The notes beneath the pieces were generated by a model. The model had not been told where the DNA came from. It worked only from the letters and a program-made list of their open reading frames with translations, and searched no databases. The position numbers and the translations under genes were made by a program. Source: Roseimaritima sediminicola (GTDB lineage: Bacteria; Planctomycetota; Planctomycetia; Pirellulales; Pirellulaceae). From it: a DNA stretch of 64,000 nucleotides. The stretch lies in NCBI RefSeq assembly GCF_009618275.1, contig NZ_WIAD01000001.1, forward strand, positions 310,001 to 374,000. Direction: 5' to 3'. This document shows, piece after piece, positions 16,749 through 59,926 of this stretch. Every line of letters starts with the position of its first letter. The first letter of the stretch is position 1.

Positions 16749-16774
16749 AGTGGCATAGGCTTCCAGCCTGTGAA
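16749..16774 (+). repeat. REP1 unit
   Basis: GTGG at 16750, then arm CATAGGCT, loop TCC, arm AGCCTGTG. The arms pair over 8 bp with one T-G wobble. It starts 3 nt after the decarboxylase stop, in the gene's orientation. Confidence 0.92.
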
Positions 16775-25037: not shown

Positions 25038-25253
25038 TTCACAGGCTGGAAGCCTATGCTACTGTTCACAGGCTGGAAGCCTATGCTACTGTTCACAGGC
25101 TGGAAGCCTATGCCACTGTTCACAGGCTGGAAGCCTATGCCACTGTTCACAGGCTGGAAGCCTATGCTACTGTTCACAGGCTGGAAGCCTATGCCACTGT
25201 TCACAGGCTGGAAGCCTATGCCACTGTTCACAGGCTGGAAGCCTATGCCACTG
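25038..25253 (-). repeat. REP1 tandem array, 8 units of 27 bp
   Basis: Eight head-to-tail units on the minus strand at an exact 27-bp period. Some units have GTAG instead of GTGG at the 5' end. A ninth, partial unit follows (25251-25267) and contains the stop codon of the adjacent minus-strand gene. There are no unique spacers, so it is not a CRISPR array. The reading frames through it are repeat-derived and not genes. Confidence 0.95.
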
Positions 25254-40374: not shown

Positions 40375-40438
40375 GGTGGCATAGGCTTCCAGCCTGTGAA
40401 AGAACCAGCCCCCGTGGCATAGGCTTCCAGCCTGTGAA
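40375..40438 (+). repeat. REP1, two units 38 bp apart
   Basis: Units at 40375-40400 and 40413-40438 are separated by a repeated GAAAGAACCAGCCCC linker, with a third linker copy after them. Same orientation as the upstream gene. The remaining 312 nt to the BON gene show no gene. Confidence 0.92.
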
Positions 40439-49143: not shown

Positions 49144-49339
49144 AGTGGCACAGGCTTCCAGCCTGTAAAACCAGTGGCATAGGCTTCCAGCCTGTGAAAC
49201 CAGTGGCATAGGCTTCCAGCCTGTGAACAGTGGCATAGGCTTCCAGCCTGTGAAACCAGTGGCACAGGCTTCCAGCCTGTGAACAGTGGCACAGGCTTCC
49301 AGCCTGTGAAATCAGTGGCATAGGCTTCCAGCCCGTAAA
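49144..49339 (+). repeat. REP1 cluster, 7 units
   Basis: Starts at 49144, 49173, 49202, 49229, 49258, 49285 and 49314, with 27- or 29-bp spacing. Several units have CACAGGCT instead of CATAGGCT, which turns the T-G wobble into a C-G pair. Orientation matches the upstream gene. Confidence 0.95.
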
Positions 49340-56382: not shown

Positions 56383-56955
56383 ATGTCCACAGGCAAGCCA
56401 ACCACCGGTACCGCTCGCCGTCTGACGCGCGTTCTCGTGCTCGTCCTGGCGGCGGCCTGGACTCTCGACGCGCTGCCACAGGACGTGCCTGGCAAAGCGT
56501 CCCTGCGGCCGATCGCCGCCGCGATCCTGCGTCCCTTGGGACTAGAGACCGGACCGTGGTCGATGTTTGCGCCCGATCCGACGGTGGACAACGCTTGGCT
56601 GACAGCCACCCGTGCCGACACCGCTTCGCCGAACAACCTGTCCTTTGCGGCGGCGATCCCGGAGCCGATTTGGTCCTCGCCGCAGTGGGCGGACGTTCCG
56701 GCTTGGGAAAAATTCTATCGCTTCCGCCACCTAAATTATTCCAACCGTATCCGCTTGCCAGCCAATCGCGCGGCCGCGCGCGACCTTGCCCGGTACCTGG
56801 ACAGGCAGTATCCGGCGGAAGATCCCGAGGCGGTCTTGCAGTTGACCGCCGATGGGCTGCGTCTGGTCCCGCCCTATGACGGAGGCATTCCCAAGCCCGA
56901 AGAAGCGACCTGGATGCTGTACAGCGAACCGCTGGCCACCGGAGTTCGGCCATGA
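56383..56955 (+). CDS. Protein of unknown function paired with an HTTM gene
   Basis: Protein of 190 residues. The N-terminus has one hydrophobic segment (RVLVLVLAAAWTLDALPQ), probably an uncleaved anchor or a signal sequence. The rest contains GPWSMFAPDPTVDNAWLTA and EKFYRFRHLNYSNRI, which resemble segments of partner proteins that often sit next to HTTM genes. No catalytic motif is recognised. The stop overlaps the HTTM start (ATGA), so the two are made together and probably form a membrane complex. Confidence 0.75.
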   Translation: MSTGKPTTGTARRLTRVLVLVLAAAWTLDALPQDVPGKASLRPIAAAILRPLGLETGPWSMFAPDPTVDNAWLTATRADTASPNNLSFAAAIPEPIWSSPQWADVPAWEKFYRFRHLNYSNRIRLPANRAAARDLARYLDRQYPAEDPEAVLQLTADGLRLVPPYDGGIPKPEEATWMLYSEPLATGVRP

Positions 56956-57965
56956 GTCACATCCGGCATTCGATCACCCGCCGGCTGGACCACTTTCTGT
57001 TCGAATCGGCCTCGCCTCACACCTGCGTCGTTTTGCGAATTGCGTTCGCGACCTTGCTGTTGGTTTATCTGGGCGTGTGGTCGGCGGACGCGGCGTACTG
57101 GTTCAGCGACGAGGGCGTTTTGACGACGGCCACCGCGGGGCAACTCGTGCCCGCCCCCTTGTGGTCGCTGTTTAACTGGGTTCCCGCCACACCGGCGGTG
57201 GTCACCATCGCCCTGGCAATCCTGATCCTTCAAAGCGTGTGTTTGTTGGCGGGCCTCGCTTCGCGTTTTCAAGCCGCATGTTTGTTCGTGGGTCTGGTGT
57301 CCTTTCAGAACCGCAATCCGGTAATCGGCGATGCGGAGGACACGATGCTGCGGATCGCGATCTTTTGTCTGATCTTTATGCCGCTGGACTACCGGTGGTC
57401 GCTGGGCCGGTGGATGGCCGGTCGCCCGGCGTACGACGCGTCGCTTGCCCGTTCGCGAGCGTGGGGGCTGCGGTTGCTGCAGTTTCACCTCAGCCTGCTG
57501 TACCTCTCGGCGGCCGCCTGCAAATGGTTCGGCAGCACATGGCGGGACGGTTCGGCGCTGTACTACGTCTACCAGATGGAAGACCTGTTTGGTCGCGGGC
57601 CGCTGCCGATGTGGCTGATGCAGGAGGAGCTAGCGATCCGGCTTTCGACGTGGGCGGTGCTGGCCGTGGAGTCCCTATTGCCCGTAGCGCTTTGGTTCCG
57701 CCCCACGCGCACCCTCGCCGTGGCTGCGGGCATCGCGTTGCACCTGAGCTTGGAATACGCGATGCACCTGCATCTATTTCAGTGGATCATGATGGCCAGT
57801 TTGTTGGCGTTTTTACCCAGTGGCATAGGCTTCCAGCCTGTGAAAAAAACCACCTCGACCCACAACCTACATCAAGGATTTCGGAATAGGCATACCGCGT
57901 TGGATCCCGAACTCCTTTCGCAAACGCGCCGAAGACCAGCGGTATTGGTCCACGTGCTCGACTAG
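56952..57965 (+). CDS. HTTM (vitamin K-dependent carboxylase-like) membrane protein, C-terminus overwritten by REP1/RAYT DNA
   Basis: Membrane protein with several hydrophobic segments (IAFATLLLVYLGVWSADAAYW, VVTIALAILILQSVCLLAGLA, IAIFCLIFMPLDYRW). Family features include QNRNPVIGDAEDTMLRI and LLYLSAAACKWFGSTWRDGSA. The native sequence runs for about 289 codons to LLAFLP. There the frame enters a REP1 unit (57819) without a stop and continues for 48 codons through the repeat and antisense to the RAYT gene, ending at 57965. Members of this family usually continue past this point, so the original C-terminus seems lost or replaced. Whether it is functional is unknown. Confidence 0.8.
   Translation: MSHIRHSITRRLDHFLFESASPHTCVVLRIAFATLLLVYLGVWSADAAYWFSDEGVLTTATAGQLVPAPLWSLFNWVPATPAVVTIALAILILQSVCLLAGLASRFQAACLFVGLVSFQNRNPVIGDAEDTMLRIAIFCLIFMPLDYRWSLGRWMAGRPAYDASLARSRAWGLRLLQFHLSLLYLSAAACKWFGSTWRDGSALYYVYQMEDLFGRGPLPMWLMQEELAIRLSTWAVLAVESLLPVALWFRPTRTLAVAAGIALHLSLEYAMHLHLFQWIMMASLLAFLPSGIGFQPVKKTTSTHNLHQGFRNRHTALDPELLSQTRRRPAVLVHVLD
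57819..57844 (+). repeat. REP1 unit, left flank of the RAYT gene
   Basis: A single unit in plus orientation fused in frame to the HTTM coding sequence. It ends 22 nt before the RAYT stop codon. Confidence 0.93.
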
Positions 57966-58571
57966 CCCGGCGACAACGGGATTGTTCTCGATGTATTCAA
58001 TTATTCGATGCAGTTCCGCTTCGTCGCGTACACAATGGTCAAATGTTTCCACTTGCCAAAACGATCCCGTTTTTCCCAACAACCGATTACACTGCGTACC
58101 GGTATAGCTCTGGACACTATGCGAAATGACTTCTCGAGGCGTTCGTTTGTTGGATTTGTGTCGCTGACCCGTCGCAAGCTCGTCCACCCAGTCATCTATA
58201 GGAAGAAAAACCCAATGATGGTGACTCGGCATGACTACGAACGCAAATAAGTGGTAGCGTTCGCCAGCAAAATGCAAGAACGCATCTTGCACGATCTCGG
58301 CGAGCCGTTCATCGGCAAGATGCTTGACTGGAGGCTGCTGATCAAGAAGCGAGTCGACGAGTTTGAAAACCAGTTTGTGCTTTTGCAATTCCCAGTCGGC
58401 GTCGCTTCGGTCGTGCGGCTTGCTGCGAGCGTCTAGCTCCTGGCGATAGTCGCGGATTTGTTTCAATCCGGCGGCCGGCAAACTCCCTTGTAAACAAGCC
58501 GTCACGAATGACGGCTTGCCCTCGATATCGATGTGCGGGAGATTTCGCCGTCGAAAGATACCATCGAACAT
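57867..58571 (-). CDS. REP-associated tyrosine transposase (RAYT, IS200/TnpA-like)
   Basis: HUH endonuclease/transposase of 234 residues, the usual RAYT size. I use the ATG at 58571; in-frame codons upstream run through REP1 units. The HUH metal site is VVMPSHHHWVF (His 117-119). The C-terminal signatures NRLLGKTGSFWQVETFDHCVRDEAEL (in two parts) and IIEYIENNPVVAGLV carry the catalytic Tyr, probably residue 193; YRWSSARLR follows as in known RAYTs. In the characterised family the enzyme binds and cuts REP hairpins at a 5' GT(A/G)G tetranucleotide, which is exactly what REP1 has. It is thus the likely author of the REP1 family in this genome. Confidence 0.93.
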   Translation of the reverse strand: MFDGIFRRRNLPHIDIEGKPSFVTACLQGSLPAAGLKQIRDYRQELDARSKPHDRSDADWELQKHKLVFKLVDSLLDQQPPVKHLADERLAEIVQDAFLHFAGERYHLFAFVVMPSHHHWVFLPIDDWVDELATGQRHKSNKRTPREVISHSVQSYTGTQCNRLLGKTGSFWQVETFDHCVRDEAELHRIIEYIENNPVVAGLVEHVDQYRWSSARLRKEFGIQRGMPIPKSLM

Positions 58572-58595
58572 GAACTGCCCCTTTTGTGGTGGGTT

Positions 58596-58702
58596 TTCAC
58601 AGGCTGGAAGCCTATGCCACTGCTCACAGGCTGGAAGCCTATGCCACTGTTCACAGGCTGGAAGCCTATGCCACTGCTCACAGGCTGGAAGCCTATGCCA
58701 CT
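58596..58702 (-). repeat. REP1, four units of 27 bp
   Basis: Units start at 58596, 58623, 58650 and 58677 on the minus strand. The array ends 7 nt from the nadA stop codon and has nadA's orientation. It also forms the right flank of the RAYT gene. Confidence 0.94.
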
Positions 58703-58709
58703 GGTACAC

Positions 58710-59849
58710 CTACTTCACAGCAAGCATTCGCTCTAGCGCGACGAGGCTCCACTTGCTGGTGTCGTCGTCGACGGAGATGACGTTTACGGGATGGCCGTCC
58801 CGCAGGTTCTCCAGGCTCCAGCACAGATGCGCCAGGTCGATGCGGTACATCGTCGCGCACATGCAGAGGACCGGCGAGAGGAAATGGATCTCCTGCTCGG
58901 GGTGCTCCTGCTTCAAGCGGTTCACCAGGTGCAGCTCGGTGCCGATGGCCCATTTAGTGCCCGGCGGGCTGTTCTTGACGGTCTGGATGATCGTACCGGT
59001 GCTGCCCGAGACGTCGGCCAGATCGTTGACTTCGCGGGGGCATTCGGGATGCACCAGGATCTTGATCCCCGGGTGCTGTTTGCGAAACTGCTCGACGTGT
59101 TCGGGGCGGAACATCTGGTGCACGCTGCAGTGGCCCTTCCAGAGGATCACCCGGCTGTTCTCCAACACCGACTCTTCGATCCCGCCCAGCTCCATCGCGT
59201 ACGGATCCCAGACCGGCATCGCTTCGGTATCGATCCCCATCTTCAGGGCGGTATTGCGGCCGAGGTGTTGGTCGGGGAAGAAGAACACGCGTTGCCCGCG
59301 TTCGAAAGCCCACTCCAACACGGCTTTGGCATTGCTGCTGGTGCAGACGATGCCGCCGTGGCGACCACAGAAGGCTTTCAGGCTGGCCGCACTGTTGATG
59401 TAGGTGACGGGGATGACCTGGTCGGTATCGATGATTTCGGACATGTCTTCCCAAGCCGCTTCGACTTGGTTGATCGCCGCCATGTCCGCCATGGAGCATC
59501 CCGCGGCCAAATCCGGCAACACCACGGGAATGCGGCGGCCATCGCGTTTTTCCAGGCGATCGGGACGGTTGGCCAAAATATCGGCCGTTTCCGCCATGAA
59601 GTGCACGCCGCAGAACACAATGTTTTCGCACTTTGTGCTCGCGGCCGCCATCTGGCTCAGCTGGTAACTATCGCCGCGCAGGTCCGCATGAGCGATGACT
59701 TCATCTTGCTGATAATGGTGCCCCAGAATCAGCAAGCGTTCGCCCAGGTGGGCGCGTACGGCCTCGATCCGCTGTTGCAAAACATCGTTTTCCAACGATT
59801 TGTAAGGGGCTAACGGATGCTGGACTTCCGATTCAGTGATCGTACTCAC
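58710..59849 (-). CDS. nadA: Quinolinate synthase A
   Basis: [4Fe-4S] enzyme of 379 residues that condenses iminoaspartate with dihydroxyacetone phosphate in NAD synthesis. I choose the GTG at 59849 (VSTITESEV), with CGGAG about 6 nt upstream; a TTG at 59885 is the alternative. Iron-sulfur ligands are expected in FCGVHFMAE, KGHCSVHQMF and SPVLCMCATM. HHYQQDEV near residue 45 and HPECPREV near 270 are family motifs. No nadB or nadC lies nearby. An 11-nt direct repeat (CTCTTTCAAAT, about three copies) lies just upstream at 59877-59909. Confidence 0.96.
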   Translation of the reverse strand: MSTITESEVQHPLAPYKSLENDVLQQRIEAVRAHLGERLLILGHHYQQDEVIAHADLRGDSYQLSQMAAASTKCENIVFCGVHFMAETADILANRPDRLEKRDGRRIPVVLPDLAAGCSMADMAAINQVEAAWEDMSEIIDTDQVIPVTYINSAASLKAFCGRHGGIVCTSSNAKAVLEWAFERGQRVFFFPDQHLGRNTALKMGIDTEAMPVWDPYAMELGGIEESVLENSRVILWKGHCSVHQMFRPEHVEQFRKQHPGIKILVHPECPREVNDLADVSGSTGTIIQTVKNSPPGTKWAIGTELHLVNRLKQEHPEQEIHFLSPVLCMCATMYRIDLAHLCWSLENLRDGHPVNVISVDDDTSKWSLVALERMLAVK

Positions 59850-59926
59850 AAAGAACTCCGGGACGACTGAGCGAATCTCTTTCAAATCTCTTTCAAATCT
59901 CTTTCAAAACCCTTCACGGGCATTAT

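What the first reader, a model, noticed from the sequence alone, without database searches (positions are those of the whole stretch)
57819..58702. A RAYT transposase sits beside its likely REP family in a planctomycete
The gene at 57867-58571 has the HUH site (SHHHW), the YIENNP tyrosine region and the size of a REP-associated tyrosine transposase. It is flanked by inverted copies of a repeat (REP1) that occurs 23 times in this 64-kb window. REP1 starts with GTGG (GTAG in some copies), followed by an 8-bp hairpin with a TCC loop; RAYTs are known to recognise a 5' GT(A/G)G foot plus a REP hairpin. So gene and substrate are both visible. REP/RAYT systems are well described in gamma-proteobacteria; I am not aware of a described case with such dense tandem arrays in planctomycetes.
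Basis: partly seen in the sequence, partly recalled or inferred. Interest (0 to 1): 0.88.

Follow-up and report, generated by a model that had tools for sequence, protein, structure and literature searches.

The report
Planctomycete REP transposase with its repeats
A single-copy gene for a DNA-cutting enzyme sits between copies of a short hairpin repeat that occurs about 700 times in this genome; relatives carry the same gene family with a matching but different repeat, so gene and repeat evolve together, a known kind of system with an unusual arrangement of the repeats.

Summary
The ORF at 57867-58571 (-) is a REP-associated tyrosine transposase (RAYT/TnpA_REP): its predicted fold matches the E. 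coli RAYT 4er8 (Z 15.6) and the HUH, Tyr and guide-contacting residues are present. It is flanked by inverted copies of REP1 (GTGG + 8-bp hairpin, TCC loop), with 23 copies in the window and 725 in the genome. Its closest relatives (64-65%) are flanked by REP1 variants whose changes keep the stem paired. RAYT and REP distances correlate over 51 loci, and one genome holds two RAYTs with different REPs. A congener has the same two convergent neighbours with nothing between them. So it is a REPtron, a known kind, already reported for Planctomycetes including R. baltica. Less usual: REP1 forms head-to-tail arrays (89 of 95 neighbour pairs, 60 at 27 bp), and arrays often start foot-first within 15 nt of stop codons (22 of 49 groups; tail-first 1 of 49; random positions 1.8%); another REP in a second genus gives 16 of 36 against 0 of 36. 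Against a tight link: in 6 of 10 genomes with REP1-like repeats no cognate RAYT was found. Transposition is inferred.

The parts
57867..58571 (-). RAYT / TnpA_REP gene, 234 aa
   Evidence: NF047646 E 2e-18, 66.7 bits, below its cut-off of 80; profile of relatives matches 4er8 at 1.1e-11; model pLDDT 89.4; 4er8 Z 15.6, rmsd 2.5, 145 residues
58212..58226 (-). HUH site, residues 116-120 SHHHW; H117 and H119 invariant in 10 aligned sequences
57978..57995 (-). catalytic tyrosine motif YIENNP, residues 193-198; Y193, N197, P198 invariant in 10
58026..58058 (-). W172 Q173 ... D178 H179 ... R182, aligned with E. coli W94 Q95 E100 H101 R104, residues tied to the GTAG guide
   Evidence: alignment to 4er8; conservation; residue roles from PMC6006769 passages
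57820..57843 (+). REP1 copy 3' of the RAYT gene, foot outward, at the 3' end of the HTTM gene
58597..58701 (-). four head-to-tail REP1 copies (58597-58620, 58624-58647, 58651-58674, 58678-58701), 27-bp period; first foot 8 nt after the nadA stop
16750..16773 (+). single REP1 copy
25039..25251 (-). array of 8 REP1 copies, 27-bp period, 3 with GTAG foot
40376..40437 (+). two REP1 copies, 38 bp apart
49145..49338 (+). array of 7 REP1 copies, 27/29-bp spacing
56952..57965 (+). neighbour HTTM gene; its ORF runs through a REP1 copy (GIGFQPV) into the RAYT 3' end
   Evidence: PF05090 E 9e-12
58710..59885 (-). neighbour nadA, convergent to HTTM and codirectional with the RAYT gene
   Evidence: PF02445 E 3e-97

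Best explanation
A REPtron. The single-copy RAYT at 57867-58571 most likely recognises single-stranded REP1 by its GTGG foot plus the 8-bp, TCC-loop hairpin, cuts beside it through Tyr193 with His117/His119 holding the metal, and so copies or moves REP1 around the genome. Shown here: protein family and predicted fold; feet-outward flanking REPs; the genome-wide REP1 family; RAYT-REP co-variation across genomes and within one genome; an occupied site whose congener counterpart is empty. Inferred: that the protein cleaves REP1, that REP1 copies arise by its action, and that the replicating unit here is a single REP laid down foot-first behind genes and then amplified head to tail.
For: RAYT. Only match in its genome at E <= 1e-3. 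REP1: 23 in window, 725 in genome, control 0. Co-variation: L009 (64%) with GTGGCACAGGCTTCCAGCCTGTG, L010 (65%) with GTGGGATAGGCTTCCAGCCTGTC, L011 (47%) with GTAGGATAGGCTTCCAGCCTGTC. The same GTRG hairpin lies in both flanks of 48 of 110 RAYT loci, 0 in five shuffles, 1-2 when flanks of different loci are paired. Mantel r 0.41, 0 of 9999 permutations as high, n=51. G016 has two RAYTs, 36% alike over the 206 kept columns, with different REPs; the second one's REP is identical to that of its 68% relative in G011. Variants found by sequence alone show paired stem changes: pair 5-23 in G016 and G027, 6-22 in G001, 8-20 in G044. Empty site: G001 has HTTM (58%) and nadA (90%) convergent, 100 bp apart, no RAYT or REP1 between.
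Against: 62 of 110 RAYT loci gave no matching hairpin in both flanks by my scan; some contigs end near the gene and some loci bear other repeats. In 6 of the 10 genomes with at least 5 REP1-like copies (G001, G019, G027, G044, G061, G064) no RAYT that I read bears that repeat; not every RAYT of G001, G019, G027 and G044 was fetched. Having some RAYT relative is not discriminating: 71 of 117 genomes have one. The protein is below the NCBIfam cut-off and has no Pfam match on its own. The Mantel test does not by itself separate co-evolution from shared descent. Mobility is not observed. The genome is a 185-contig assembly.
Confidence: 0.85

Rival explanations
1. REP1 is an RNA-level 3'-end element (ribosome-stalling, mRNA-stabilising or terminating hairpin) kept by selection; the RAYT sits among REPs because 3' ends of genes are where both are tolerated, and it no longer moves them.
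For: Foot within 15 nt after the stop of a coding-like ORF: 22 of 49 groups in G000, 16 of 36 in G016, 2 of 16 in G039; tail side 1, 0 and 1. The sense RNA hairpin is far stronger than antisense, -10.8 against -5.7 kcal/mol. In E. coli REPs within 15 nt of a stop are reported to stall ribosomes (PMC12306157, passages).
Against: Does not explain why the repeat sequence tracks the RAYT within one host, nor why the gene itself is bounded by the repeat and absent from the congener's site. The orientation bias is also expected if only the sense strand is a substrate. Not exclusive with the REPtron reading.
Confidence: 0.25
2. REP1 was spread by a RAYT that has since been lost or by another Y1 enzyme; the present RAYT is a bystander that inserted into an existing REP1 site.
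For: REP1-like families exist without a cognate RAYT found in G061 and G064; other REP-like families in G000 have no RAYT bounded by them among the loci read.
Against: The three closest RAYTs, in three genera, are each bounded by a REP of the same family in the host's own variant, and the match is RAYT-specific within G016.
Confidence: 0.08
3. Ordinary IS200/IS605 insertion sequence whose subterminal hairpins happen to look like REPs.
For: Same HUH-Y1 fold; best IS608 chain Z 10.8.
Against: One match in the genome against hundreds of solo hairpins; YxxxNP is the class 2 (TnpA_REP) signature and WQ..DH..R the guide region in PMC6006769 (passages); the best structure is the RAYT 4er8 at Z 15.6.
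Confidence: 0.03

Closest known systems
REPtron: RAYT (TnpA_REP) with flanking REPs (Nunvar 2010, PMC2817692, passages; Ton-Hoang 2012, recalled)
   Same: HUH-Y1 gene between inverted REPs with GT(A/G)G head plus hairpin; REP and RAYT co-evolve; many solo REPs in the genome.
   Different: GTGG foot in 45 of 48 copies on 454 kb of C97; head-to-tail arrays rather than inverted doublets or alternating BIMEs; His in the middle of the HUH motif (SHHHW).
Planctomycete GTAG REPs and tyrosine transposases, R. baltica (Di Nocera 2013, PMC3733652, passages and section 5)
   Same: Same phylum (R. baltica as a planctomycete is recalled), REP families with tyrosine transposase genes and corresponding flanking repeats.
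   Different: The text I read gives no REP1-like sequence or array description for R. baltica; figures and supplements were not available. GTGG feet are named there for O. terrae.
TnpA_Y1 subclass 2.4 / Bertels group 4 (Quentin 2018, PMC6006769, Table 1, section 17 read)
   Same: WQ and YIxNNP motifs; extra residues between HUH and the next helix; various phyla.
   Different: HUH is SHHH, not NH[IFV]H; REP1 is a short 8-bp hairpin, not long or double-foot. Their HMMs were not available to test.
S. maltophilia REPtron Sm (PMC8266576, passages)
   Same: REP of 23 nt: 4-nt foot, 8-bp stem, 3-nt loop; cleavage shown in vitro there.
   Different: Foot GTAG; perfect stem; cut at CT; RAYT group 3.
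REPINs of Pseudomonas (Bertels and Rainey 2011, PMC3116915, passages)
   Same: RAYT-linked, hundreds of copies, extragenic, some tandem clusters.
   Different: There the unit is an inverted doublet (93% of 430 doublets) and singlets are held to be defunct; here 89 of 95 neighbours are head to tail and 7 of 13 lone copies are exact.

Membership tests
RAYT / TnpA_REP | HUH-Y1 fold of the RAYT type | tested here: met
   4er8_A Foldseek E 1.1e-7; Z 15.6, rmsd 2.5 over 145 residues, best IS608 chain Z 10.8; on a predicted model
RAYT / TnpA_REP | HuH and YxxxNP motifs | tested here: met
   H117, H119, Y193, N197, P198 invariant in 10 sequences; the middle residue is His, outside the list L,V,I,F,Y,M in PMC6006769
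RAYT / TnpA_REP | Residues tied to the GTAG guide (W94, Q95, E/D100, H101, R104 in E. coli) | tested here: met
   W172, Q173, D178, H179, R182 align
RAYT / TnpA_REP | NCBIfam NF047646 curated cut-off of 80 bits | tested here: not met
   66.7 bits, E 2e-18. This is one annotation model's threshold, not a feature of the family: REP-flanked RAYTs such as L151 (37.9 bits) and L157 (70.1 bits) also fall below it
[quoted passage not shown]
RAYT / TnpA_REP | Low intragenomic copy number | tested here: met
   one match in own genome
REP | GT(A/G)G foot next to a short hairpin, over 100 copies per genome | tested here: met
   725 copies; hairpin
REP | Mostly extragenic | tested here: inconclusive
   22 of 49 groups lie directly behind a stop; the extragenic share was not measured
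REP | Co-evolution with its RAYT | tested here: met
REPtron | Single-strand cleavage of the REP by the RAYT | not testable with these tools
   needs purified protein
REPIN / BIME | Inverted doublets or alternating orientation as main arrangement | tested here: not met
   89 of 95 neighbour pairs in the same orientation in G000
TnpA_Y1 subclass 2.4 | NH[IFV]H, WQ, YIxNNP, insertion beta3:alphaC, long or double-foot REP | tested here: inconclusive
   WQ, YIxNNP and extra residues present; HUH wording and REP type differ

The most novel reading that the evidence does not exclude
In this lineage the replicating unit is a single REP hairpin of about 27 nt, not an inverted doublet: the RAYT lays it down in one orientation, foot facing the stop codon of the upstream gene, and it then grows into head-to-tail arrays. 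A transcription-linked single-strand target behind stop codons would explain the orientation, making this a RAYT system with an oriented, gene-end insertion preference.
Probability: 0.3. Interest if true: 0.65.

Novelty: new member of a known kind. Interest (0 to 1): 0.42.

Why it matters
It is a clean planctomycete REPtron with a set of matched RAYT/REP pairs of graded divergence, including two pairs in one genome. That makes REP recognition specificity directly testable by swapping proteins and hairpins, outside the gammaproteobacteria whose RAYT biochemistry I saw (PMC8266576). If the oriented behind-the-stop placement reflects insertion rather than selection, it would say where RAYTs find single-stranded targets.

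Tried and rejected
Guide-dinucleotide idea. TnpA_Mb substrates with a GTGG foot were cut at CA or CC (PMC8266576, passages), and CA lies directly before the foot of the first copy in 29 of 49 G000 groups (background 6%). The same test failed in two other GTGG-footed families: G016 (AT 15 and GT 8 of 36; the printed probability of 0.91 corresponds to 1 CA) and G039 (1 CA of 16). I do not claim that rule; the bases before the foot are family-specific.

Head-to-tail arrangement as a clade feature: rejected. G016 19 of 23 neighbour pairs in the same orientation, G039 15 of 36.

Singlet decay (singlets defunct, as in Pseudomonas): in G000 lone copies were exact in 7 of 13, other copies in 100 of 131 (up to 6 mismatches). 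Lone copies are more decayed, so the single-REP unit is not proven.

Presence or absence of a RAYT as a test: too weak. Eight of 10 genomes with at least 5 REP1-like copies match the window RAYT, against 71 of 117 overall; the other two, G061 and G064, still have distant NF047646 matches.

Other RAYT copies in the own genome: none at E <= 1e-3 with the window protein; the seven PF01797 matches are other Y1 types by sequence. PHROGs gave one weak unnamed match, E 0.0015. Pfam gave nothing for the window protein, though 8 of 10 aligned sequences hit Y1_Tnp.

Literature searches: 13, 16, 17, 20, 62, 67, 77, 78, 79. In their listings I saw no paper on a Pirellulaceae REPtron beyond the planctomycete and R. 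baltica remarks in PMC3733652 and the class 3 remark in PMC6006769; most subscription papers are not in the library.

Full report
WHAT IS THERE. The ORF at 57867-58571 on the minus strand encodes 234 residues. It lies between nadA (58710-59885, -) and an HTTM-domain gene (56952-57965, +). One REP1 copy lies 3' of the gene and four lie 5' of it, feet outward. REP1 is GTGG CATAGGCT TCC AGCCTGTG A. The GTGG strand forms the full 8-bp hairpin with one G-T pair; the other strand has a C-A mismatch there and folds less well: -5.0 against -3.7 kcal/mol as DNA, -10.8 against -5.7 as RNA. The window holds 23 copies at 0-2 mismatches. The genome holds 725 at up to 3 mismatches, with 0 for the reversed control.

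THE PROTEIN. NCBIfam NF047646 (REP-associated tyrosine transposase) matches at E 2e-18 but 66.7 bits, below its cut-off of 80. A profile of the ten aligned sequences finds the E. coli RAYT 4er8 at 1.1e-11. The predicted structure has mean pLDDT 89.4 and matches 4er8 at Z 15.6, rmsd 2.5, 145 residues; the best IS608 chain has Z 10.8. H117, H119, Y193, N197, P198, W172, Q173, D178 and R182 are invariant in the ten. W172, Q173, D178, H179 and R182 align with the E. coli residues tied to the GTAG guide (roles from PMC6006769 passages). The middle HUH residue is His in this protein and in L009, L010, L038 and L039, outside the list given in PMC6006769. The gene is the only match to itself in its genome at E <= 1e-3.

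THE LINK BETWEEN GENE AND REPEAT. Relatives were taken from 117 genomes around the window's own (71 with a match; the 30 loci that were returned) and from one capped scan of public genome contigs (best 80 of 469 relatives among the rows returned). The nearest are flanked by near variants of REP1: L009 (64%), L010 (65%), L038 and L039 (55-56%; uncultured Pirellulaceae), L011 (47%). Over these 110 loci, 48 have the same GTRG hairpin within 300 bp on both sides. Shuffled flanks give 0 in each of five rounds, and pairing flanks of different loci gives 1-2. For these 48 plus 3 of 5 added loci, RAYT distance and REP distance correlate, r 0.41, with 0 of 9999 permutations as high. Host relatedness alone does not explain it. 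G016 has four matches to the RAYT. Two of them, 36% alike over kept columns, are bounded by different REPs, and the second one's REP is identical to that of its 68% relative in G011, another genus; for the other two (L185, L186) my scan found no hairpin. REP variants fetched by sequence alone show paired changes: stem pair 5-23 in G016 and G027, 6-22 in G001, 8-20 in G044.

EMPTY SITE. In congener G001 the orthologous HTTM (58%) and nadA (90%) genes are convergent with 100 bp between the stops and no RAYT or REP1. In the window the REPtron fills that gap, and the HTTM reading frame has lost its own stop and runs through REP1 into the RAYT 3' end. Gain here fits better than loss, because no RAYT match in G001 or G002 exceeds 41% identity and G003 (82% complete) has none, but one locus cannot settle direction. 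In the other genomes read at nadA no HTTM or RAYT homologue lay within the 1.5-kb flanks, so they do not inform.

AGAINST A TIGHT ONE-TO-ONE LINK. Ten of 117 genomes have at least 5 REP1-like copies at up to 2 mismatches: G000 707, G039 214, G011 192, G064 89, G044 85, G016 35, G061 35, G027 27, G001 24, G019 7. A RAYT bounded by the host's matching variant was found in four (G000, G039, G011, G016). In G061 and G064 the five NF047646 matches at E <= 0.01 were read and none is bounded by the repeat, though one of them (L141) lies near a contig end. G061 is 99% complete and only 5 of its 35 copies are exact to the pattern; G064 is 81% complete with 21 exact among 102 at up to 3 mismatches. In G001, G019, G027 and G044 not every RAYT was fetched. 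So REP families seem to outlive or outrun their RAYTs.

ARRANGEMENT AND PLACEMENT. I read 454 kb of contig C97 and 20 further stretches chosen because they hold exact REP1 copies: 138 copies at up to 4 mismatches in 43 clusters. Of 95 neighbour pairs, 89 have the same orientation and 60 are exactly 27 bp apart. [quoted passage not shown] The arrangement is not general in the clade: same orientation in 19 of 23 pairs in G016 and 15 of 36 in G039 (30 loci each, exact copies first, the G039 set dominated by one array). Of 49 oriented groups in G000, 22 have the foot within 15 nt after the stop of an ORF of at least 100 codons with coding-like GC3; the tail side gives 1 of 49 and random positions 1.8%. 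G016, with its own REP, gives 16 of 36 against 0 of 36; G039 gives 2 of 16 against 1 of 16. REPs close behind stop codons are known (PMC3733652 passages; PMC12306157 passages). In the passages I read I saw no statement that the foot faces the gene. ORFs were called by length and GC3 only, and groups may share ancestry by segmental duplication, so these counts are not all independent.

MECHANISM. Most likely the RAYT binds REP1 on the strand that folds, cuts next to it, and passes copies to new single-stranded targets; cleavage and strand transfer are shown in vitro for other RAYTs (PMC8266576 passages). The orientation bias can come from insertion into single strands exposed behind terminating transcription, or from selection on the mRNA 3' end; the present data do not separate the two. 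A rule linking the GTGG guide to a CA cut fitted G000 (29 of 49) but failed in G016 and G039.

VERDICT. A well-supported REPtron in a genome whose nearest named RAYT relatives are Pirellulaceae: a new member of a known kind, with an oriented, head-to-tail REP arrangement worth a follow-up.

Noticed in passing
own genome C97 (454 kb read), e.g. C97:428986-429288: Other REP-like families lie beside REP1: GTAGC(A/G)CGGCTGTCCCAGCCG and a CTTTCGCTCCGCGAAAG hairpin. Four 93-bp units combine REP1 with the first of these in both orientations. No RAYT bounded by them was seen among the loci read in G000.
   Followed up: partly
window 56952-57965: The HTTM gene has lost its stop to the REP insertion; its C-terminus is REP-encoded (GIGFQPV) and the frame overlaps the RAYT 3' end antisense.
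   Followed up: partly
G039:C9:94613-95602 (within L231-L247): A 22-copy head-to-tail array of the G039 REP with 46-bp period.
   Followed up: no
L008, L009, L010, L038, L039: RAYTs with His as the middle residue of the HUH motif (PSHHH), all with GTGG-footed REPs.
   Followed up: no
G000 C110 and C97 end (L005-L007): Three short Y1 transposase relatives of another type, one with an internal stop.
   Followed up: no
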